Shown: positions 69-13,984 of the stretch, one piece after another | How the letters are laid out: the number at the start of each line of letters is the position of its first letter | Numbering within the stretch: position 1 is the first letter of the stretch | DNA from: Promethearchaeota archaeon | Lineage (GTDB): Archaea; Asgardarchaeota; Lokiarchaeia; Sigyniarchaeales; SOKP01 | Assembly (NCBI GenBank): GCA_018238625.1 | Contig: JABCSY010000008.1 | Location: 1 to 64,000 of the forward strand | Reading direction: 5' to 3' | DNA: 64,000 nt | Notes under the pieces: generated by a model | What the model saw: only the letters and a program-made list of their open reading frames with translations | The model's database searches: none | What the model was told of the DNA's origin: nothing | Translations under genes and position numbers: made by a program

Positions 69-374
69 ATGGGTAAGACTATAACATCAAGGTTACCAGA
101 TAAAATGGTTGAAGAGATAGAAAGAATTGCAAAGTTAGAGAATCTTGATAGGTCTAGTGTCGTGAGAAGGCTATTAAATAAGGCAATTCCCGAATGGAAA
201 CTAGAGTATGCTTTAAAATTATATCAACATAAAGAAATTTCTTTAGGAAAAGCAGCGGAATTAAGTTCTCTATCTATATGGGAAATGTTAGAAAAATTGT
301 CACAAAATAGTATTCCTCTTAATTATGACCTTGAAGAATTAGAAAGTGATTTGGAAAAGGTTAAAGAATTATGA
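69..374 (+). CDS. RHH / UPF0175-like antitoxin
   Basis: A 101-aa DNA-binding antitoxin candidate. Residues 1-45 (start MGKTITSRLPDKMVEEIERI, then SSVVRRLLNKAI) read as a ribbon-helix-helix domain, and residues 48-85 (LYQHKEISLGKAAELSSLSIWEML) match the UPF0175 family helix block that includes a second helix-turn-helix-like segment. The C-terminus is acidic and probably wraps the toxin. Its stop overlaps the start of the next gene by 4 bases (ATGA), so the two are translated together. By family knowledge the complex would repress its own promoter. The call as antitoxin rests on the neighbour and the fold pattern, not on proof of toxicity. Confidence 0.75.
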   Translation: MGKTITSRLPDKMVEEIERIAKLENLDRSSVVRRLLNKAIPEWKLEYALKLYQHKEISLGKAAELSSLSIWEMLEKLSQNSIPLNYDLEELESDLEKVKEL

Positions 375-871
375 CACAATATTCAATCATTTCAAATGCA
401 ACTCCTTTAATTGCATTCATTAAAAAAAATGAACTATCCATATTAAAAACCCTTTTTAAAGAAATAATTATTCCTAAAGCTGTTTATGATGAGATTTTAA
501 ATACACCTAGAACTTTAAATAAAGAAGGAGAGATTTTAAAGAAAGAAATAAAAAACAAATGGATTCGTATTAGAGAAATTACTAAACTAAAATTTTCTGA
601 ATTAAATCTTGGAAGAGGAGAAACCGAAGCACTTAATTTATGTATAGAATCCAATAACCCATTATTACTTATTGATGAAAAAAAAGCAAGGAATATCGCT
701 AAATCTTTAAAGATAGATGTATTAGGAACTATAGGGATATTATTACTCGTTAATAAAAGAGGGCTAAAAAATGAACAAGAAATATTAGAAAATTTAGATC
801 TTTTAATTAAAAAGGGGTTTTATTTGTCAAGCGAAGTAATTTTAGGTTTTTTAAATAAAATTAGGAAATGA
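371..871 (+). CDS. DUF3368 PIN-like toxin
   Basis: A 166-aa protein of the DUF3368 family, a branch of the PIN-domain RNase fold that is usually paired with UPF0175 or RHH antitoxins. Visible hallmarks are ISNATPLIAFIKKNEL at the N-terminus (the first acidic Asp of classical PIN is Asn here, as is common in DUF3368), the YDEIL segment, the LGRGETEAL helix with its conserved Glu, LLIDEKKARNIAKSL with an acidic pair, and VLGTIGILLLVNKRGL. Full length for the family. It overlaps the antitoxin by 4 bases. Predicted to cleave RNA when freed from the antitoxin; substrate unknown. Confidence 0.8.
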   Translation: MTQYSIISNATPLIAFIKKNELSILKTLFKEIIIPKAVYDEILNTPRTLNKEGEILKKEIKNKWIRIREITKLKFSELNLGRGETEALNLCIESNNPLLLIDEKKARNIAKSLKIDVLGTIGILLLVNKRGLKNEQEILENLDLLIKKGFYLSSEVILGFLNKIRK

Positions 872-2957: not shown

Positions 2958-3121
2958 GTAGATATTCATAAGACTTTAAAATATATTTATAATCCACTTT
3001 TTTTAATGAACGAATTTTCTTATATTTTATATTGTAGATTACGATGCGTACTTAATCGATCTTAAATTCCCTCTAAAAGATCATTAAATCTTATTATTTT
3101 TACCTTAATTTTTTAATAAGG

Positions 3122-3139
3122 TTATCATACGATTGATAA
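3122..3139. promoter_or_regulatory. Candidate operator palindrome TTATCA-N6-TGATAA
   Basis: A perfect inverted repeat with six-base arms and spacer TACGAT sits at the 5' end of the duplicated upstream region. A dimeric HTH protein could bind it. The Lrp-type regulator encoded at 8398-9282 lies between the two operator copies and is the obvious candidate, but nothing in the sequence proves the pairing. Confidence 0.5.
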
Positions 3140-3218
3140 TCGGTTTGTATTGGGTAATTTTTTATTTAATCTAATACTTGATTGAATAAAATTAAGTTAA
3201 TCTTTAAACAAAGATACT
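3122..3218. repeat. 97-bp upstream repeat, copy 1
   Basis: This stretch aligns without gaps to 11624-11720, with about five mismatches in 97 bases. It lies 40 bases before the chimeric mini-ORF at 3258, just as copy 2 lies 30 bases before the intact gene at 11750. It begins with a palindrome and contains an AT-rich TTTTTTATTTAA segment that could be the TATA box. The first 120 coding bases that follow are visibly less alike between the two loci than this non-coding stretch. Confidence 0.9.
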
Positions 3219-3257
3219 CAATTAAGTTAAAATTTAAATTTCAGTTAGGTTATTACT

Positions 3258-3458
3258 ATGCTAATCAGCTTCCCGAACATGGGTCCGAACTGGGTGGCTT
3301 TTAAAACCTTATTCACGAGTCTTGATTTAGATGTGGTTGTTCCAGATCCAACTAATCGAGAAGCTATTAAGATTCGAATAGAATCCTTCACTGAAATTAT
3401 TAAGCGCAAGAAGAGAATGCAAGCTGGAAAAAAGAAAGCGAAAAGAAGCGTGCAATAA
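3258..3458 (+). pseudogene. Chimeric mini-ORF: COG3581 start joined to a COG3580/DUF2229 tail
   Basis: A 66-codon frame. Residues 1-39 match the first 39 residues of the COG3581-type protein at 11750 almost exactly (SFPNMGPNWVAFKTLFTSL, PDPTNREAIKI). Residues 40-55 (RIESFTEIIKRKKRMQ) instead match the extreme C-terminus of the DUF2229 half of the gene that follows (RVESFVEMIRRKKYK). All cluster cysteines and the whole core are missing, so it cannot be a working enzyme. The simplest reading is one large in-frame deletion that ran from the first gene of a duplicated operon into the last gene. Whether the 66-aa peptide is still made is unknown. Confidence 0.75.
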
Positions 3459-3493
3459 TCGTTTCGTACAATAATCCCAACCCTGTGTTTAAC

Positions 3494-5911
3494 ATGAGCG
3501 AAGAAAAACTAGCAATACATAAAAGAAAAGTAGAAGCGATCTCTGAAATGGTTAGAAATGCGTACGATAACGCGAAGCCGGGGGAATATTTCTCTCTAAA
3601 AAAGGCAAGCGTTTCCCACATGGCTCCACAGCCGGATAATCCGACCTATAGTGACAAGCCGATAGACGTGAGGTCACTTACAGACATTATTGAGATAAAC
3701 ACGGATACAAGGACGTGTATTGCAGAAGCAGGGATTACTTTTGTTAGGCTTGCAACAGAAACCTTAAAGTATGGGCTCGTACCGCAATGTGTTTCCGAGC
3801 TCAAGGGAATCACGATAGGCGGGGTAGTAGCAGGATGTTCAGTTGAATCCATGTCTTTCAAGTATGGGGGATTTTTCGATTCCTGTGAAGAAATAGAGAT
3901 TGTGACAGGAACAGGTGACATAATGTTATGCACGAAAAGTGATAACCATGAAATATTCGAGATGCTGCACGGGAGTTTCGGCACGATTGCAATCATCACG
4001 CTCCTGAAGTTCAAGCTCGTTCCAGCAAAAGAGTGCGTCCGCATCGATTACATCCGTTACGATACTTTTAGTGAATACATGGAAGCTATCAAGCAACACT
4101 ACGAAAAGCAGGATATTGAAATGATGGACGGGCTTATCTTCTCCGAGAATATGAACGTACTCTGCGTTGCCAGCTTCGTTGATGAGGAGGAAGCTCCTTA
4201 CAAGAGTGAATATTTCTACGATATTTATTACAAAAGTGCGATGAAAAAAAAGCGAGACTTCCTCTCCACCATAGATTATTTTTTCAGGTATGATGCAGAT
4301 TGCCACTGGTCGATACGGAATGTTGCTGGAGGAATTTTTGAGAATAAAGTAGTCCGGTGGTTAGTAGGGCCCTTTATACTTGGATCGACAAATATTCTTA
4401 AGATCAGCGAACGATTGCCATTTTTAACTAAGAAGGGGGGAGAACCGGACGTGATTATTGATGTCTTCATACCAATCACTCACGCGGAAGAGTTTTTCAA
4501 TTGGTACCTGGAGTTATTTGATTACTTCCCGGTTTGGATCGTCCCTTACCGCATGCAAAAAAACAAACTAGATGGGTACAAGTTCTACCCGTGGCTCAAT
4601 CAAGACATGATCGCTCCCATCGAGGATGAACTATTCATAGATTTTGCCATCTACGGGTTCGAGCAAAAAAGAAAGGGATTTAACTTCTATAAAGCGCTAG
4701 AAGAAAAGGTTCATGAGCTCAGGGGAATGAAAACCCTGATAACTCACAATTTCTACGAGGAAGACTTGTTCTGGAAGGTATATAACAAAAAATTTTACGA
4801 TAAAGTGAAAGAACGAACGGATCCCAAGAACCTATTTCGAAACTTGTACGAAAAGACGAATTATAAAAATCAGAAAAAGACTGAAAAGACGAAAAGACTG
4901 AAGGTAGGTATACCACGTTCCCTGTATTTCTACAAGTATTTTCCATTATGGGAAGGAATGCTTACAAGTCTTGGTTGCGAAGTTATTGTGAGTCCAGAAA
5001 CAAACAAAGAAATTCTTACCAACGGATCTAATCAATCTGCAACCGATTTATGCATTCCAGTCAAGATTCATTATGGTCACGTGAATTATTTATCGAGAAA
5101 TCACCCCGATCTAGATTTTATATTTGTTCCAAGACTCATTAGTAAAAGTAATGATCATTATTTTTGTCCGAAATTCCTGATCCTTCCAGATGTCACTCAA
5201 CACTCAGCAGTTTCTAATATTCCCGTTATTGAATGGATTTTTAATGCCAGGGAACATTCAATGATGAAATCAGCAATAGATTTTGGAAAAACATTAGATA
5301 AATCAAAAGAAGAATCAAAACTGGCGTATGAGAATGGATATAAAAAACTTGAAGAATTCCATGAGTTGATTGAGGATGGAATTCTTGTTCCTGATGCATT
5401 TTACAAAATGTATCCTTTTGAAAAATATCCAAATTATAAGTTTAAGAAAAGATTTCGACCTAAACTTAACAAAGATTATGAAAATTATCCACTTTCATTA
5501 ATGGTTCTTGGTCATCCATACAATACTTATGAATCAATTATTAATCATGGATTAATGGATATTCTCAAATCCAATTTTGTTGATGTTGTAACTGTTGAAA
5601 ATGCTCCAAAGGAAATCTTCTCAAGAAGAGTTGAAATTGATGATAATTTTTGCAATTTCTGGGATAATGAAGATGAATTGATGCAATTATCTGATTATGT
5701 TATACATAATGAAGAGATTGATGGGGGTATTTTCTTGATTTCTTTTGCATGTGGTCCTGATTCTTTAATTCAAGAATTGGTAATGCAGGATTTTGACATG
5801 AAAGATAAGCCTTATATTAATCTCACATTAGATGAACACACTGGAGAATCTCAAATAACTACAAGAGTAGAATCTTTTGTCGAAATGATAAGGAGGAAGA
5901 AATACAAATGA
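3494..5911 (+). CDS. DHCR24-like FAD reductase fused to DUF2229 (COG3580) cluster protein
   Basis: An 805-aa fusion. Residues 1-455 follow the whole length of Delta24-sterol reductase (DHCR24, a PCMH-type FAD enzyme): ITIGGVVAGCSVESMSFKYG is the FAD-binding loop, then LHGSFGTIAIITLLKFKLVPAK, FENKVVRWLVGPFI, YFPVWIVPYR and the terminal EEDLFWKVYNKKFYDKVKER. Residues 467-805 are DUF2229: KRLKVGIPRSLYFYKYFPLW, LCIPVKIHYGHVNYL, IFVPRL, FCPKFLILPD, ISFACGPDS, with cysteines suited to an iron-sulfur cluster. The first half is visibly richer in G+C than the second, with the change near the joint (about 4840-4980), so the first half was probably acquired. The ATG at 3494 is chosen; a GTG at 3485 adds three residues. 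The stop overlaps the activase start by 4 bases. Substrate unknown; a C=C bond of a lipid or acyl group is an inference. Confidence 0.85.
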   Translation: MSEEKLAIHKRKVEAISEMVRNAYDNAKPGEYFSLKKASVSHMAPQPDNPTYSDKPIDVRSLTDIIEINTDTRTCIAEAGITFVRLATETLKYGLVPQCVSELKGITIGGVVAGCSVESMSFKYGGFFDSCEEIEIVTGTGDIMLCTKSDNHEIFEMLHGSFGTIAIITLLKFKLVPAKECVRIDYIRYDTFSEYMEAIKQHYEKQDIEMMDGLIFSENMNVLCVASFVDEEEAPYKSEYFYDIYYKSAMKKKRDFLSTIDYFFRYDADCHWSIRNVAGGIFENKVVRWLVGPFILGSTNILKISERLPFLTKKGGEPDVIIDVFIPITHAEEFFNWYLELFDYFPVWIVPYRMQKNKLDGYKFYPWLNQDMIAPIEDELFIDFAIYGFEQKRKGFNFYKALEEKVHELRGMKTLITHNFYEEDLFWKVYNKKFYDKVKERTDPKNLFRNLYEKTNYKNQKKTEKTKRLKVGIPRSLYFYKYFPLWEGMLTSLGCEVIVSPETNKEILTNGSNQSATDLCIPVKIHYGHVNYLSRNHPDLDFIFVPRLISKSNDHYFCPKFLILPDVTQHSAVSNIPVIEWIFNAREHSMMKSAIDFGKTLDKSKEESKLAYENGYKKLEEFHELIEDGILVPDAFYKMYPFEKYPNYKFKKRFRPKLNKDYENYPLSLMVLGHPYNTYESIINHGLMDILKSNFVDVVTVENAPKEIFSRRVEIDDNFCNFWDNEDELMQLSDYVIHNEEIDGGIFLISFACGPDSLIQELVMQDFDMKDKPYINLTLDEHTGESQITTRVESFVEMIRRKKYK

Positions 5912-6939
5912 ATGAACCAGAATTTATCAAAAATATTCTTTCAGATGATGTGGATGACAAGTTATATCTAGGAATCGATGTCGGAAGTGTCTCCACGAAA
6001 TGTGCAATAATTAATGAGAGAAATGAATTATTGTATGCTACCTGGACCAGAAATGATGGTTCTCCCATTGTTTCTACACAAGAAAATCTAAAATACATGG
6101 AAGAAGTCCTTCCCGATAACATCGAAAAAAGTATTTGTGGTGTTGGGACAACAGGTTCTGCCAGGTATTTAATAAAAGCTCTTATCGGTGCAGATATAGC
6201 AAAACCTGAAATAATTGCTCATGCAATTGGAGCTTCAACTTATACCCCTGATGTGAGAACAATTCTTGAAATCGGGGGACAGGACAGCAAAGTTATATTG
6301 ATGAAAAATGGCATCGTAACAGATTTTAACATGAACAGTGTTTGTGCTGCCGGAACTGGTTCTTTTCTAGATCACCAAGCAGTTCGGATCAAGGTTCCAA
6401 TTGAAGAATTTGGGGATTATGCTCTTCGGGCAGAAGAGGAGGTTTCAATTGCAGGACGATGCACAGTTTTTGCCGAATCTGATATGATCAGTAAACAACA
6501 AGAAGGATATTCTAAAGAATCAATTATCAAGGGATTGTGTAAAGCTCTTGTTAGAAACTACTTGAATAATGTTTGCAAGGGAAAAAAAATGTATCCTCCC
6601 TTTGTATTCCAGGGAGGAGTTGCAGCAAATTCCGGAATAAAAAATGCTTTTGAAGAAGAATTGGGGTATGAAGTCATTGTTCATGAGAACTATTACGTGA
6701 TGGGAGCATTTGGTTCAGCCATTTTGGCAAAGGAACATGTAAATGGACAGATATCTTCTTTTCATGGCCTAAAAGTTAGTGAAATGAACTTGGCTCCAGG
6801 TTCATTTGTCTGTCCTGATTGTGCAAATAGATGTACAGTTAAATACCTTGTCAGGGAAGAAGATAAAAGTAGAGTAACTGGAAGAGAAAAGGATGATGCG
6901 ATATTTGCACGATGGAATAGTAGGTGCGGTAAATGGTAA
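5908..6939 (+). CDS. BadF/HgdC-type ATPase, activator of 2-hydroxyacyl-CoA dehydratase-like reductases
   Basis: A 343-aa ASKHA-fold ATPase. GIDVGSVSTK (residues 22-31) is the first phosphate loop, EIGGQDSKVI the second, and Cys146 (NSVCAAGTGSF) and Cys185 (SIAGRCTVFAESDM) are the ligands through which two subunits hold one 4Fe-4S cluster. ATP hydrolysis drives a low-potential electron onto the partner cluster protein. The C-terminus adds a four-cysteine tail (Cys302, 305, 309, 340) that in the giant bacterial activases lies between the ATPase and DUF2229 parts. It overlaps the genes on both sides (4 and 7 bases), so the three form a tight operon. It is paralogous to 12959-13984. Confidence 0.92.
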   Translation: MNEPEFIKNILSDDVDDKLYLGIDVGSVSTKCAIINERNELLYATWTRNDGSPIVSTQENLKYMEEVLPDNIEKSICGVGTTGSARYLIKALIGADIAKPEIIAHAIGASTYTPDVRTILEIGGQDSKVILMKNGIVTDFNMNSVCAAGTGSFLDHQAVRIKVPIEEFGDYALRAEEEVSIAGRCTVFAESDMISKQQEGYSKESIIKGLCKALVRNYLNNVCKGKKMYPPFVFQGGVAANSGIKNAFEEELGYEVIVHENYYVMGAFGSAILAKEHVNGQISSFHGLKVSEMNLAPGSFVCPDCANRCTVKYLVREEDKSRVTGREKDDAIFARWNSRCGKW

Positions 6940-8267
6940 ATGTTAGAGTTTCATTTTCACGAATGGGTTGGAGCTATATTTTTTTCAAAGGTTTATTCCA
7001 TGATCTTCCTGGTATTGAAGTTGTTGAACCCCCTCTAGTAAACACTGAAATCGTTAGTGAAGGAGTCAAAAATTCTCCTGAATTCGTTTGTTTTCCATTT
7101 AAAGTCATTCTTGGTGAAATGATAAACCTGTATCGTAATTATGATGTTAAAGATTTTGCGATGATTGCTGACTACGGCCCTTGTCGAGCAGGAATGTATG
7201 GTGTTGTCCAGAAAAGAATCCTGAAAAGCATGGGATTCAAGGATGTTAGAATGTTTTATCTACGTCAAGATGATTTCAGAAATCTTGAATGGCTAAGGGT
7301 ATTTCGTGATTTAGAAAAAAGAACAGGAAGAAAATTTGAGGACTATAAAGTTTTAAGAAACACACTCTTGTTCATGGTCAAAGCATACTATGTTGAAAGA
7401 ATAACCCATATTGAAGGACTTGTTAGATGTCGAGAAAAAAACAAAGCAATGACTACCAAAGTAGTTCATACTTTGATGAATTTACTTGATAACGAAAATA
7501 ATTTGATGAAATTATCTAATTTTGATAGAACGATAGATGAAAAATTTCGCAAGATTCCTATTGACAAGGAAATGGAACCTTTGAGGGTTTGTTATACTGG
7601 GGAAATCCAAGTCATGTTGGAGAAATGGGTTAATTATGATCTGATGGGAGAATTAGGCGTCATGGGTATCGAGGTTCACAAGCAGTATGATGTCTTTGAT
7701 TGGGTCATGTACAAACTTGACGCCAGCAAACGAAGAAGACGGCTTAAACATAGTGCAAGAAAGTATATTCCAATGGATATAGGAGGCGAGGCATTATGGA
7801 ACATGGGAAGTTATCTTGAGTCTCAAGAAAAAGGCTTCAACGGCTATGTACACATTTTTCCCTTCACCTGCATGCCTGAAATATCCCTCATGGGAATGTT
7901 AGAAGCTGAGAAAAACATGGACAAGTTTTACATGCCCCACATTCATTTTAGTCTTGATGGAAGTTCTGGTTTTGAAGGACTTAGAACAAGAATCGAAGCA
8001 TTTCATGATTTAATGGTTGGCAACAAGAAAAATAATCCCTTGTTTAGAGATGCCAAGTATGTGGTCCCGGATGAGATAAAAAATATATATTTTAAGCCGA
8101 AATCCAATTTTGAATATTTCGTGTCTAGTATTGAAACCCCAATGTCAAAGGTTTTAACAATGCTGAATCCATCAAAGAAATTAGATGTAGGATTCGCCGT
8201 TAAGAATGGACTCGAGTTTTTTTCAAGAAATTCGTTTTTTGGTATCGGATCTCTTTTTAACCTTTGA
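6933..8267 (+). CDS. COG3581-type HgdB-like iron-sulfur protein
   Basis: A 444-aa protein related to the cluster-bearing subunits of 2-hydroxyacyl-CoA dehydratases and to double-cubane-cluster proteins. Conserved points are SRMGWSYIFFKGLF at the start, EFVCFPFK (Cys53), DYGPCRAGMYGVVQKRIL (Cys84), PMDIGGEALWNMGSYL and FPFTCMPE (a third cysteine). It ends with an extra 50-residue hydrophobic-basic tail (EYFVSSIETPMSKVLTML onward) that the paralogue at 11750 lacks. It would receive electrons from the ATPase encoded just upstream, with which it overlaps by 7 bases. The substrate is not evident; family members also reduce small molecules. Confidence 0.88.
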   Translation: MVNVRVSFSRMGWSYIFFKGLFHDLPGIEVVEPPLVNTEIVSEGVKNSPEFVCFPFKVILGEMINLYRNYDVKDFAMIADYGPCRAGMYGVVQKRILKSMGFKDVRMFYLRQDDFRNLEWLRVFRDLEKRTGRKFEDYKVLRNTLLFMVKAYYVERITHIEGLVRCREKNKAMTTKVVHTLMNLLDNENNLMKLSNFDRTIDEKFRKIPIDKEMEPLRVCYTGEIQVMLEKWVNYDLMGELGVMGIEVHKQYDVFDWVMYKLDASKRRRRLKHSARKYIPMDIGGEALWNMGSYLESQEKGFNGYVHIFPFTCMPEISLMGMLEAEKNMDKFYMPHIHFSLDGSSGFEGLRTRIEAFHDLMVGNKKNNPLFRDAKYVVPDEIKNIYFKPKSNFEYFVSSIETPMSKVLTMLNPSKKLDVGFAVKNGLEFFSRNSFFGIGSLFNL

Positions 8268-8397
8268 GAAGCTATTTTGTTATGAAAGAAATATCAACAG
8301 ACTAAGAATGAACCTAAAATTAAAACCTTACTTTCAATTAACTTTATTTTTTAAGCAAATTATAATAAATAATAATATTGACTTTCTAGTTAGAATT

Positions 8398-9282
8398 ATG
8401 GATGAAATTGATTTTATCATTCTTAAAAAACTAATGGAAAACTCTCGCGTGACGTATAGAGAATTAGCAGAAATAATCGATATGTCCGTAAGCTCTACTC
8501 ATAAACGTATAAATAAACTTTTAGAAAATGGGGTTATCAAGGCATTTACTGCCCGACCAAGTGCAATAGCATTAAAATATCTATCTGTTATAGTTTTTGG
8601 TACTTCTAATGCAAAATCATTGGATGCTGTTAGTAAAGAGTTAGGGCAACATGAAAATATTAATAACGTTGCTATTGCAACCGGTAAAATGCTGTATATC
8701 TCTTCATATTTAAGAGATATAACAGGTCTTCGTGATTTTTCTGCTTATGTCTCAAAAACAGCTAATATAAGCGAACCTACTGTTGGAATTATGGATATAC
8801 CTTATATAACAACCCCAGAACCACTAACCACCATTGATTATAAAATACTAAAGTCTCTAAATAGAGATTCAAGGAAGCCTCTAACAGATATTGCAGATGA
8901 AGTAGGGCTTTCTGCTAAAACCGTTAGAAAACGATTAGATCGAATGATTGAGAATTACTTAGTAGAATTTACAATTGAAATGACCTTAAAATCTGAACAT
9001 AATTTGATTACAGGGTTCCATATATCTTTAAACGAAGGCACTAGCATAGACTCATCAATACAAAATATATATGAGAAATTTAAACAAAATGTTATTTATT
9101 GTATAAGCTATAGTAATATTCCTAACTTCTTTACAATGTATATATGGACAAAAGCGATTCAAAACTCCCAGAAAATTAACGAAGAACTACAATCTGAAGG
9201 ATTCAAAGATATTATTCCTATTATCTTCTTACATTCAGAATTTTACGATTGTTGGGTTGATCAATTACTTAGAACTAAATGA
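8398..9282 (+). CDS. Double-HTH Lrp/AsnC-family regulator
   Basis: A 294-aa transcription regulator with two Lrp-type winged helices: residues 4-48 (DFIILKKLMENSRVTYREL, then SSTHKRINKLLENGVI) and 145-190 (TIDYKILKSLNRDSRKPLTD, then SAKTVRKRLDRMIENYLV). Each is followed by a region of alpha-beta character that resembles a degenerate RAM sensor. The open frame extends upstream to 8206, but that part overlaps the previous gene and is not Lrp-like, so the ATG at 8398 is used. Archaeal Lrp proteins of this double form exist; their ligands are mostly unknown. It follows the reductase operon by 130 bases and is the best candidate to bind the palindromes at 3122 and 11625. Confidence 0.88.
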   Translation: MDEIDFIILKKLMENSRVTYRELAEIIDMSVSSTHKRINKLLENGVIKAFTARPSAIALKYLSVIVFGTSNAKSLDAVSKELGQHENINNVAIATGKMLYISSYLRDITGLRDFSAYVSKTANISEPTVGIMDIPYITTPEPLTTIDYKILKSLNRDSRKPLTDIADEVGLSAKTVRKRLDRMIENYLVEFTIEMTLKSEHNLITGFHISLNEGTSIDSSIQNIYEKFKQNVIYCISYSNIPNFFTMYIWTKAIQNSQKINEELQSEGFKDIIPIIFLHSEFYDCWVDQLLRTK

Positions 9283-11464: not shown

Positions 11465-11623
11465 AGTTGTAGAATATGGAAGAACAAAAGATTATTGAAT
11501 AATTTTTCTATAGTGATAATTCTACTCAGTTTTTTTATTAAGATTAATTTTACTATTTTAATAAGATAGGTTTATTGATATCTATTTTTTAATTATTAAT
11601 TTTACTCAGTTTTTTTATTAAAA

Positions 11624-11720
11624 ATATCATACGATTGATAATCTGTTTGTATTGGGTAATTTTTTATTTAATCAAATACTTGATTGAGTAAATTTAAGTT
11701 AATCTTTAAACAAAGATACT
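11624..11720. repeat. 97-bp upstream repeat, copy 2
   Basis: Gapless partner of 3122-3218, lying 30 bases before the intact COG3581 gene at 11750. It includes the palindrome TATCA-TACGAT-TGATA at 11625-11640 and the same AT-rich candidate TATA region. A second, short repeat (TACTCAGTTTTTTTATTAA) occurs twice just upstream, at about 11523 and 11603. Confidence 0.9.
11625..11640. promoter_or_regulatory. Candidate operator palindrome TATCA-N6-TGATA
   Basis: Five-base arms around the same spacer TACGAT as the copy at 3122-3139. The sixth base pair of the arm is lost here. Its presence at both loci in the same position makes it a plausible binding site for a shared regulator. Confidence 0.5.
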
Positions 11721-11749
11721 GACTATTAACTTGAGGATTTTTCCAAGAA

Positions 11750-12940
11750 ATGATAATTTCTTTTCCCAATATGGGCCCCAACTGGGTAGCATTTAAGACG
11801 CTATTTACAAGCCTTGGTCTAGATGTAGTTATTCCAGATCCAACGAATCGAGAAGCGATTAAGATTGGGGTAAAACACTCCCCCGAATTTGTGTGTTTCC
11901 CGTTTAAAGCGACTATTGGAGATTTCGTGAATGCTATAAAGAAGGGAGCAGATACGCTAGTCATGGCAATAGATTGTGGACCATGTAGATTTGGCTTTTA
12001 CGCGAGCGTCCAAGAACGTATTTTGAAGGATATGGGATATAAAAATATTACGGTTATCCCCCTCGACCAAGCAGATTTACTTGATTTTAAATGGGTCAAA
12101 ACTCTTCAAGAAGTTAGTGGTCGAAAGGACTTGTTTATGTATTCAAAGTTCGTTAAGGCTGTAATTCTTTTCCTAAAGAAAGCTAAGCTATTAAACGATA
12201 TTCAAACTGCCGAAGGTATCTTCCGAGCTTACGAGCGCAATCAGGGAGATACGACGGAATTGATTAGAAACTTATTGAATAAGCTTGATCAAGCTAATAC
12301 GCTCCCAGAATTGAGAAAATTCAAAAGCGTTATTAAGCAAGATTTTAGCAATTTAGATACAGATAAGACCCGAACGCCTCTACGGGTTGGTGTTTCGGGA
12401 GAGATTCACATTAATTTGGAACCATACGTAAATTTAGATATCCGTAGAAAGCTGGGTGAGATGAACATTGAAGTACACCAGAGCTTGAGCTTATACGATT
12501 GGGTTGTCCATAAATTCCATTTAAATTATCACAGAAAGTGGTTAGAACACCTTTCGCAACCATATTTACCGATGGACATTGGCGGAGAGGCGATGTGGGT
12601 GCTAGGTGAATATATAAATAAAGCTCAAGCGGGGTTTGATGGCTTCGTTCATCAATATCCGTTCCTCTGTATGCCAGAAGTGACGGCACGGACGATTTTA
12701 ACTAATAAACTTAAGGGAATTTACGATCTTCCCATCATTTACTTCTCTTTCGACGAGCAGAGCGGATTGGCGGGCTTCAGGACTAGGCTAGAAGCATTCT
12801 CTGACCTAATGTATGGTCGTAGGAATAAAGAAATTAAAAATAACGCCAAATTCGTAGCAAATGGTAATAAAAAGATTTATCCGCATTATGGCGGTTTATT
12901 TTATAATGAATGCGCTCAATTAATTCAAAATTCGGTTTAA
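11750..12940 (+). CDS. COG3581-type HgdB-like iron-sulfur protein (second set)
   Basis: A 396-aa paralogue of 6933-8267. Conserved points are SFPNMGPNWVAFKTLF, EFVCFPFK (Cys49), IDCGPCRFGFYASVQERIL (Cys76, Cys79), PMDIGGEAMWVLGEYI and YPFLCMPE. It has one cysteine more than its paralogue before the GPCR motif and lacks the long C-terminal tail. The protein should carry an iron-sulfur cluster and take electrons from the ATPase encoded 18 bases downstream. No DUF2229/COG3580 gene follows in this set; the only local DUF2229 is in the fusion at 3494, so the two sets may share it. The duplicated leader upstream implies separate control from region 3.4-8.3 kb. Confidence 0.88.
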   Translation: MIISFPNMGPNWVAFKTLFTSLGLDVVIPDPTNREAIKIGVKHSPEFVCFPFKATIGDFVNAIKKGADTLVMAIDCGPCRFGFYASVQERILKDMGYKNITVIPLDQADLLDFKWVKTLQEVSGRKDLFMYSKFVKAVILFLKKAKLLNDIQTAEGIFRAYERNQGDTTELIRNLLNKLDQANTLPELRKFKSVIKQDFSNLDTDKTRTPLRVGVSGEIHINLEPYVNLDIRRKLGEMNIEVHQSLSLYDWVVHKFHLNYHRKWLEHLSQPYLPMDIGGEAMWVLGEYINKAQAGFDGFVHQYPFLCMPEVTARTILTNKLKGIYDLPIIYFSFDEQSGLAGFRTRLEAFSDLMYGRRNKEIKNNAKFVANGNKKIYPHYGGLFYNECAQLIQNSV

Positions 12941-12958
12941 TGATAAAGGTGAGATTAT

Positions 12959-13984
12959 ATGGAAGAAGTTACTGAAAAAGTTACTAAAGTAGGAAAAAAA
13001 AAAGATGCTTTCCTTGGTATTGACATAGGAAGCGTGAGTTGCAAATTTGTTTTAATGGATACAGATGGAAATTTACTTACTAGCGTGTTTTTACGAAATA
13101 GAGGTTCTCCCATCGACTCAGCCAAGGCAGGAATGGCCGAGTTACGCGATAACATAGAAGAAAGCGAAAATTTAGGCGATTACGAGATTCGTTGCTGTGG
13201 TACCACAGGTTCGGCACGGTATCTAACAAAAGCAATCGTTGGTGCCGATCTCGCTAAAACCGAGATAATAGCCCACGCAGTTGCAGCGCAAACTATCTAT
13301 CCCGATGTAAAAACGATATTAGAAATTGGCGGTCAAGATTCGAAAATTATCATTCTACGGGACGGAATAATCGTAGATTTTGCGATGAATTCTGTATGCG
13401 CTGCTGGAACGGGTTCATTTCTCGATCACCAAGCAGCGAGGCTTGGGACAGTTATAGAAGATTTTGGCTCTTACGCTATAAAATCAAAAAATCCTGTAAG
13501 TATTGCGGGAAGATGTACTGTTTTCGCAGAGTCTGATATGATTCACAAGCAAAACGCGGGTTACTCTAAAGAGGATATTATTGCAGGTTTATGCGATTCA
13601 CTTGTGCGCAACTATATGAACAACGTAGGTAAGGGCAAAGACTTAGAAGAACCCATTGTATTCCAAGGTGGCGTTTCTTACAACGAAGGGATCATTGAAG
13701 CATTTGAAAGACATTTAGGTTGCAAAGTAATTGTTCCTGAATATAATGTCCTAATGGGGGCTTTAGGAATGGCAATTTTGGTTAGAGATTTCTATTTAGA
13801 GCACGAACATCAAACCGTATTTCGAGGACTCGAAGTATCAGATATTGAGTTCACGACATCAGCGTTTAACTGTGGAGATTGCCCGAATAACTGCGAAATA
13901 GTCCAAGTAAAGATGCCTCAAGAAGGAAATAAGATTATAGCACGCTGGGGCTCTCGTTGTGGTAAATGGGATCAAGTAGATTAA
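12959..13984 (+). CDS. BadF/HgdC-type ATPase (second set)
   Basis: A 341-aa activase closely similar to 5908-6939. GIDIGSVSCK (residues 20-29) is the phosphate loop, EIGGQDSKII the second, and Cys147 and Cys186 (VCAAGTGSF, AGRCTVFAESDM) are the 4Fe-4S ligands at the dimer interface. The C-terminal cysteine tail (FNCGDCPNNCEI and SRCGKW) is kept. The start ATG has AAAGGTGAG a few bases upstream. It would couple ATP hydrolysis to reduction of the neighbouring COG3581 protein. An alternative role is activation of a dehydratase encoded elsewhere. Confidence 0.92.
   Translation: MEEVTEKVTKVGKKKDAFLGIDIGSVSCKFVLMDTDGNLLTSVFLRNRGSPIDSAKAGMAELRDNIEESENLGDYEIRCCGTTGSARYLTKAIVGADLAKTEIIAHAVAAQTIYPDVKTILEIGGQDSKIIILRDGIIVDFAMNSVCAAGTGSFLDHQAARLGTVIEDFGSYAIKSKNPVSIAGRCTVFAESDMIHKQNAGYSKEDIIAGLCDSLVRNYMNNVGKGKDLEEPIVFQGGVSYNEGIIEAFERHLGCKVIVPEYNVLMGALGMAILVRDFYLEHEHQTVFRGLEVSDIEFTTSAFNCGDCPNNCEIVQVKMPQEGNKIIARWGSRCGKWDQVD

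What the first reader, a model, noticed from the sequence alone, without database searches (positions are those of the whole stretch)
3122..3218. 97-bp non-coding repeat is better conserved than the coding sequence beside it
Copies at 3122-3218 and 11624-11720 differ at about five positions with no gaps, while the next 120 coding bases differ at roughly a quarter of positions. Non-coding DNA that outlives coding DNA suggests function (operator plus promoter, or a structured leader) or gene conversion. Both begin with TATCA-TACGAT-TGATA.
Basis: seen in the sequence. Interest (0 to 1): 0.65.

Follow-up and report, generated by a model that had tools for sequence, protein, structure and literature searches.

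The report
Conserved archaeal promoter, copied by recombination
The repeated 97-base stretch contains a promoter that many Lokiarchaeia keep in front of one family of enzyme genes, and in this genome one copy was overwritten by the other, so function and gene conversion together explain why it is more alike than the genes beside it.

Summary
In detail: 3122-3218 and 11624-11720 differ at 5 of 97 positions, while the next 117 coding bases are 79% identical. The genome has only these two copies. Related Lokiarchaeia carry 46 strong matches in 35 of 65 genomes of the same family; where context is held, they lie in one gene cluster for 2-hydroxyacyl-CoA-dehydratase/benzoyl-CoA-reductase-like proteins, up to four per cluster. 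A 41-base core never has an indel (CATACnnTTG, 14 bases, ATGGGTAAwTTTTTAT). Across 276 pairs the core is 83% identical, fourfold synonymous sites next door 34%. There is no RNA structure. Best reading: a promoter, with a factor-binding site upstream of a BRE/TATA box. The 97-bp block is longer than that core because it is also a recombination tract: outside it copy 1 matches another species (98 vs 20 informative sites), inside it copy 2 (37 vs 2; p=5e-19). A structured leader and a link to the Lrp at 8398 are not supported. Copy 1 now stands before a truncated gene stub fused to a 4.8-kb cassette shared almost unchanged across genera; other species have the cassette behind the same promoter with different junctions.

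The parts
3123..3138 (+). Module A of copy 1: proposed regulator site (TATCATACGATTGATA; family-wide conserved part CATACnnTTG)
   Evidence: alignment of 41 elements
3153..3165 (+). Module B of copy 1: BRE-like GGTAAT plus TATA-like TTTTTTAT
   Evidence: invariant spacing to module A in 41 of 41 elements; BRE/TATA identity inferred
3164..3190 (+). Module C of copy 1: A+T-rich conserved downstream motif, at variable distance from module B in relatives
3122..3218 (+). Recombination (gene-conversion) tract in copy 1, near-identical to 11624-11720
3258..3458 (+). 66-codon stub: first 39 codons of the 11750-type gene, then sequence that elsewhere lies just upstream of the FAD fusion gene
3470..8288 (+). 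Cassette of three genes (FAD-binding/DUF2229/HGD-D fusion, BcrAD-type activase, DUF2229-like protein), nearly identical across genera
11625..11640 (+). Module A of copy 2
11655..11667 (+). Module B of copy 2: BRE-like GGTAAT plus TATA-like TTTTTTAT
   Evidence: identity inferred
11666..11692 (+). Module C of copy 2
11624..11720 (+). Copy 2 of the block; probable donor-type sequence of the tract, shared with G009 and G014
11750..13984 (+). Genes behind copy 2: DUF2229-type protein (11750-12940) and BcrAD-type activase (12959-13984)

Best explanation
The core of the block (3123-3167 and 11625-11669) is the promoter of a Lokiarchaeial 2-hydroxyacyl-CoA-dehydratase/benzoyl-CoA-reductase-like gene cluster. 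A DNA-binding regulator, probably an activator, binds CATACnnTTG directly upstream of a BRE/TATA box, at a fixed distance that lets it act on TBP/TFB recruitment. Shown: strong constraint on the core, fixed spacing, restriction to this cluster, no RNA structure. Inferred: the BRE/TATA identity, binding by a regulator, and activation rather than repression. The near-identity over the full 97 bp is a second, separate event, shown by site patterns: a recombination tract, most simply gene conversion, replaced the promoter of copy 1 with a copy-2-like sequence.
For: 46 strong elements in 35 of 65 family genomes with a gap from 42 to 27 bits, plus one in a sister family; gene context is one cluster; separate transcription units of one cluster each carry one (G006 three, G008 four). 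Core gapless in 41 of 41; core identity 0.83 vs fourfold 0.34, core higher in 275 of 276 pairs. No Rfam match, no consensus pairs, no covariation. Mosaic: 72:6 sites with G012 upstream, 2:37 inside, 26:14 downstream, Fisher p = 5e-19. Archaeal activator sites lie upstream of BRE/TATA (PMC4158304, PMC6737238).
Against: No transcription start or binding data. The TATA assignment rests on resemblance and a weak word enrichment. Module A is only partly symmetric. No regulator gene is conserved nearby. Some of the sharing may come from horizontal transfer of the cluster. The conversion test rests on one outgroup genome (G012), the downstream coding signal is weak (13:7), and direction is inferred from the ordinary form being common.
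Confidence: 0.7

Rival explanations
1. Recombination alone: the core has no special function and is copied along with the gene cluster by conversion and horizontal transfer.
For: A recombination tract is shown in this genome, and DNA of this cluster moves between genera.
Against: Across 276 pairs the core is far more alike than fourfold sites of the adjacent gene (0.83 vs 0.34), and flanking non-coding DNA is not conserved. The same core stands before different genes of the cluster.
Confidence: 0.12
2. A structured RNA leader or riboswitch in the 5' UTR of the cluster.
For: Position upstream of start codons; one hairpin-like stretch ATCTTTAAACAAAGAT lies in the tail of the window copies.
Against: No Rfam match, 0 consensus pairs, palindrome arms do not covary; the tail hairpin is absent from most relatives.
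Confidence: 0.05
3. The same promoter, but repressed by a regulator at module A and/or module C, which could overlap the start site, rather than activated.
For: Module C is conserved and lies about where a start site would fall in the ordinary spacing.
Against: Module C spacing varies by about 30 nt while module A spacing never varies; sites upstream of BRE/TATA are typically activator sites.
Confidence: 0.2
4. The Lrp-type protein encoded at 8398 is the dedicated regulator of both copies.
For: Its gene lies between the two copies, and Lrp-type proteins are common archaeal regulators.
Against: No relative has it beside the element. Orthologues at 60% identity or more occur in 14 genomes, 9 with the element where about 7.5 are expected, and 26 of 35 element-bearing genomes lack one (draft genomes).
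Confidence: 0.06

Closest known systems
Archaeal promoters with an activator site upstream of BRE/TATA (TK0271 of Thermococcus kodakarensis; Ptr2; TFB-RF1)
   Same: Partly palindromic site directly upstream of a BRE/TATA-like sequence, before metabolic operons, with fixed geometry.
   Different: Regulator unknown; promoter activity and binding untested; other sequence; confined to one gene cluster of Lokiarchaeia.
Thermococcales glycolytic motif TGM (TATCAC-N5-GTGATA; TrmBL1/Tgr)
   Same: Half-sites TATCA/TGATA in the window copies.
   Different: Spacer between TATCA and TGATA is 6, not 7; the perfect form is in only 9 of 39 elements; the genes are not glycolytic.
Gene conversion between paralogous loci
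   Same: Short tract with sharp edges, near-identical to a paralogous copy, inside flanks of another ancestry.
   Different: Incoming DNA from a G009/G014-like relative could have been the source; not distinguishable here.

Membership tests
Archaeal promoter with upstream activator site | Conserved site at fixed distance upstream of a BRE/TATA-like box | tested here: met
   41 of 41 elements gapless across the core; BRE/TATA identity by resemblance only
Archaeal promoter with upstream activator site | Transcription starts 20-30 nt downstream of the TATA box | not testable with these tools
   no transcript data
Archaeal promoter with upstream activator site | A regulator binds the site and raises transcription | not testable with these tools
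   no conserved neighbouring regulator found; Lrp 8398 does not track the element
Thermococcales glycolytic motif (TrmBL1/Tgr) | TATCAC-N5-GTGATA | tested here: not met
   spacing 6 instead of 7 between TATCA and TGATA; perfect arms in 9 of 39
Structured RNA leader | Consensus structure with covariation | tested here: not met
Gene-conversion tract | Ancestry switches at both edges of the tract | tested here: met
   sites with G012 vs copy 2: 72:6 upstream, 2:37 inside, 26:14 downstream; downstream edge weaker
Dispersed mobile repeat | Copies in unrelated places of the genome | tested here: not met
   two copies in the genome, same gene context in relatives

The most novel reading that the evidence does not exclude
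The promoter is a reusable socket for gene exchange: a 4.8-kb enzyme cassette spreading between Lokiarchaeia genera has repeatedly been fused behind this promoter, or behind the truncated first gene it drives, and the promoter copies flanking the cassette serve as homology for further exchange and conversion.
Probability: 0.4. Interest if true: 0.65.

Novelty: new member of a known kind. Interest (0 to 1): 0.48.

Why it matters
Promoter elements of Lokiarchaeia, relatives of the archaeal ancestor of eukaryotes, are little charted. This one has base-level conservation across a family, a defined gene cluster and clear mutational tests. It also shows a promoter overwritten by a paralogue and placed before a travelling gene cassette, a concrete case of how operons are rewired in uncultured archaea.

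Tried and rejected
Structured RNA: rejected. Dispersed or mobile repeat: rejected. Lrp 8398 as dedicated regulator: not supported. TGM/TrmB site: spacing and half-sites fail, and the TrmB effector domain occurs in 57 of 65 genomes, mostly as weak matches, so it does not discriminate. tRNA upstream regions as a guide to the TATA consensus were too A+T-rich to read. Viral contigs gave neither the element pattern nor a relative of the FAD fusion protein. No solved structure matches the 11750 protein by sequence. A conserved neighbouring regulator was sought by clustering ORFs; none found. Literature searches found no description of this element (open-access library only). A first attempt at cutting the cores by a text anchor was faulty and was replaced by alignment columns.

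Full report
Observation. 3122-3218 and 11624-11720 align without gaps and differ at five positions. Coding sequence downstream, 3258-3398 against 11750-11890, is 76% identical. Only two full copies exist in the 4.3-Mb draft genome. Named relatives are all Candidatus Lokiarchaeota/Lokiarchaeia.

What follows the block. Copy 2 precedes a protein with a DUF2229 match (11750-12940) and a BadF/BadG/BcrA/BcrD-type activase (12959-13984). Copy 1 precedes a 66-codon stub. Its first 39 codons match the 11750 protein at all but three residues, and the rest matches sequence that in other genomes lies just upstream of the FAD-binding/DUF2229/HGD-D fusion gene, which follows here at 3485.

Conservation in relatives. 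An iterated profile found 44 related elements in the loci fetched. A sequence-only covariance model then found 46 strong elements in 35 of 65 genomes of the family, with a clear gap from 42 down to 27 bits, and one in a sister family (G068). Where gene context is held they belong to this cluster, in front of the 11750-type gene, the FAD fusion or the 12959-type activase; G006 has three and G008 four. They mark separate transcription units of one cluster, not just one duplicated gene start.

Anatomy. The alignment has a 41-base core with no gap in 41 of 41 sequences: CATACnnTTG, 14 bases, ATGGGTAAwTTTTTAT. The second part reads as BRE (GGTAAW) plus a TATA-like box. This is inferred from the known archaeal pattern, with weak support from enrichment of AATTTTA/ATTTTAT words 25-75 nt upstream of other genes (not corrected for multiple testing). 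A third module (roughly TTnATCAAATACTTGAnTnAGTAAA) follows at 0, about 15 or about 29 nt; this window and its close relatives G009 and G014 have the shortest spacing.

Selection. Over 276 pairs of elements in front of the 11750-type gene, mean core identity is 0.83, coding identity 0.76 and fourfold-site identity 0.34; the core exceeds fourfold sites in 275 pairs. Pairs are not independent, but the size of the difference is large.

RNA. No Rfam match, no consensus pair, and the palindrome's arms do not covary. A structured leader is not supported.

Gene conversion. G012 carries, behind the same upstream genes as copy 1, an element of the ordinary type before an 11750-type gene that is open to the contig end. 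Compared with G012 and copy 2, copy 1 switches ancestry: 2961-3121, 72 sites with G012 and 6 with copy 2; 3122-3218, 2 and 37; 3219-3377, 26 and 14. Fisher's test for inside against outside gives p = 5e-19. In most relatives the 3168-3218 part is only 40-75% identical, so constraint does not explain its 94% identity here. The simplest account is conversion of copy 1 by copy 2; incoming DNA from a G009/G014-like relative would look the same.

Regulator. The Lrp-type gene at 8398 is not beside any other element, and its orthologues at 60% identity or more do not track the element. No regulator gene is conserved in the neighbourhood. In characterised archaeal promoters, sites upstream of BRE/TATA belong to activators and sites downstream to repressors (PMC4158304, PMC6737238), so an activator is the favoured, unproven, reading. 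The half-sites resemble the Thermococcales glycolytic motif TATCAC-N5-GTGATA, but spacing and conservation fail.

A travelling cassette. The segment about 3470-8288 is mostly 92-98% identical at DNA level across several genera (87-92% in genus g2), while 11612-13975 is only 69-77% identical in the other-genus genomes. Its left junction differs from genome to genome: inside the element (G005), after a few codons of the 11750-type gene (G034, G006), after about 39 codons (this window and G010) or further in (G046, G017, G023). In several genomes another element follows its right end. No recombinase gene is inside, and variable junctions argue against site-specific insertion. Later deletions could also have shaped the junctions. 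This was followed only far enough to interpret copy 1.

Verdict. Function and gene conversion both hold, for overlapping but different parts. The core is a new member of a known kind, an archaeal promoter with an upstream factor site. The rewiring around it is the more unusual part and deserves its own study.

Noticed in passing
window 3470-8288; L055, L056, L059, L063, L067, L212: Three-gene cassette mostly 92-98% identical in DNA across Lokiarchaeia genera while neighbouring genes are about 70-75%; left and right junctions vary between genomes and no recombinase is inside.
   Followed up: partly
L091, L230 and contig starts of G007:C75, G056:C24, G060:C78, G099:C177: Contigs begin exactly 127 bases inside the cassette, as if assembly broke where several species in one sample share the same sequence.
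   Followed up: no
L082 near 76 (minus strand): The cassette junction carries TTATTTGATTTCATAGTTTTGATC, a piece of the element form found in other genomes (for example L060), as if the cassette brought part of an earlier promoter along.
   Followed up: no
L056:6978-7064: The element in G010 contains a tandem duplication of TTGGGTAATTTTTTA, the proposed BRE/TATA part.
   Followed up: no
window about 3092-3121 and 11593-11623: An inverted repeat TTATTAA...TTAATAA lies just upstream of the core in most related elements; possibly an upstream terminator or a second site.
   Followed up: no
window 69-871; L055:7968-8776; L081:975-1777: Two adjacent small genes (101 and 166 aa), toxin-antitoxin-like in layout, lie upstream of an element in this genome, G005 and G012, at different distances.
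   Followed up: no
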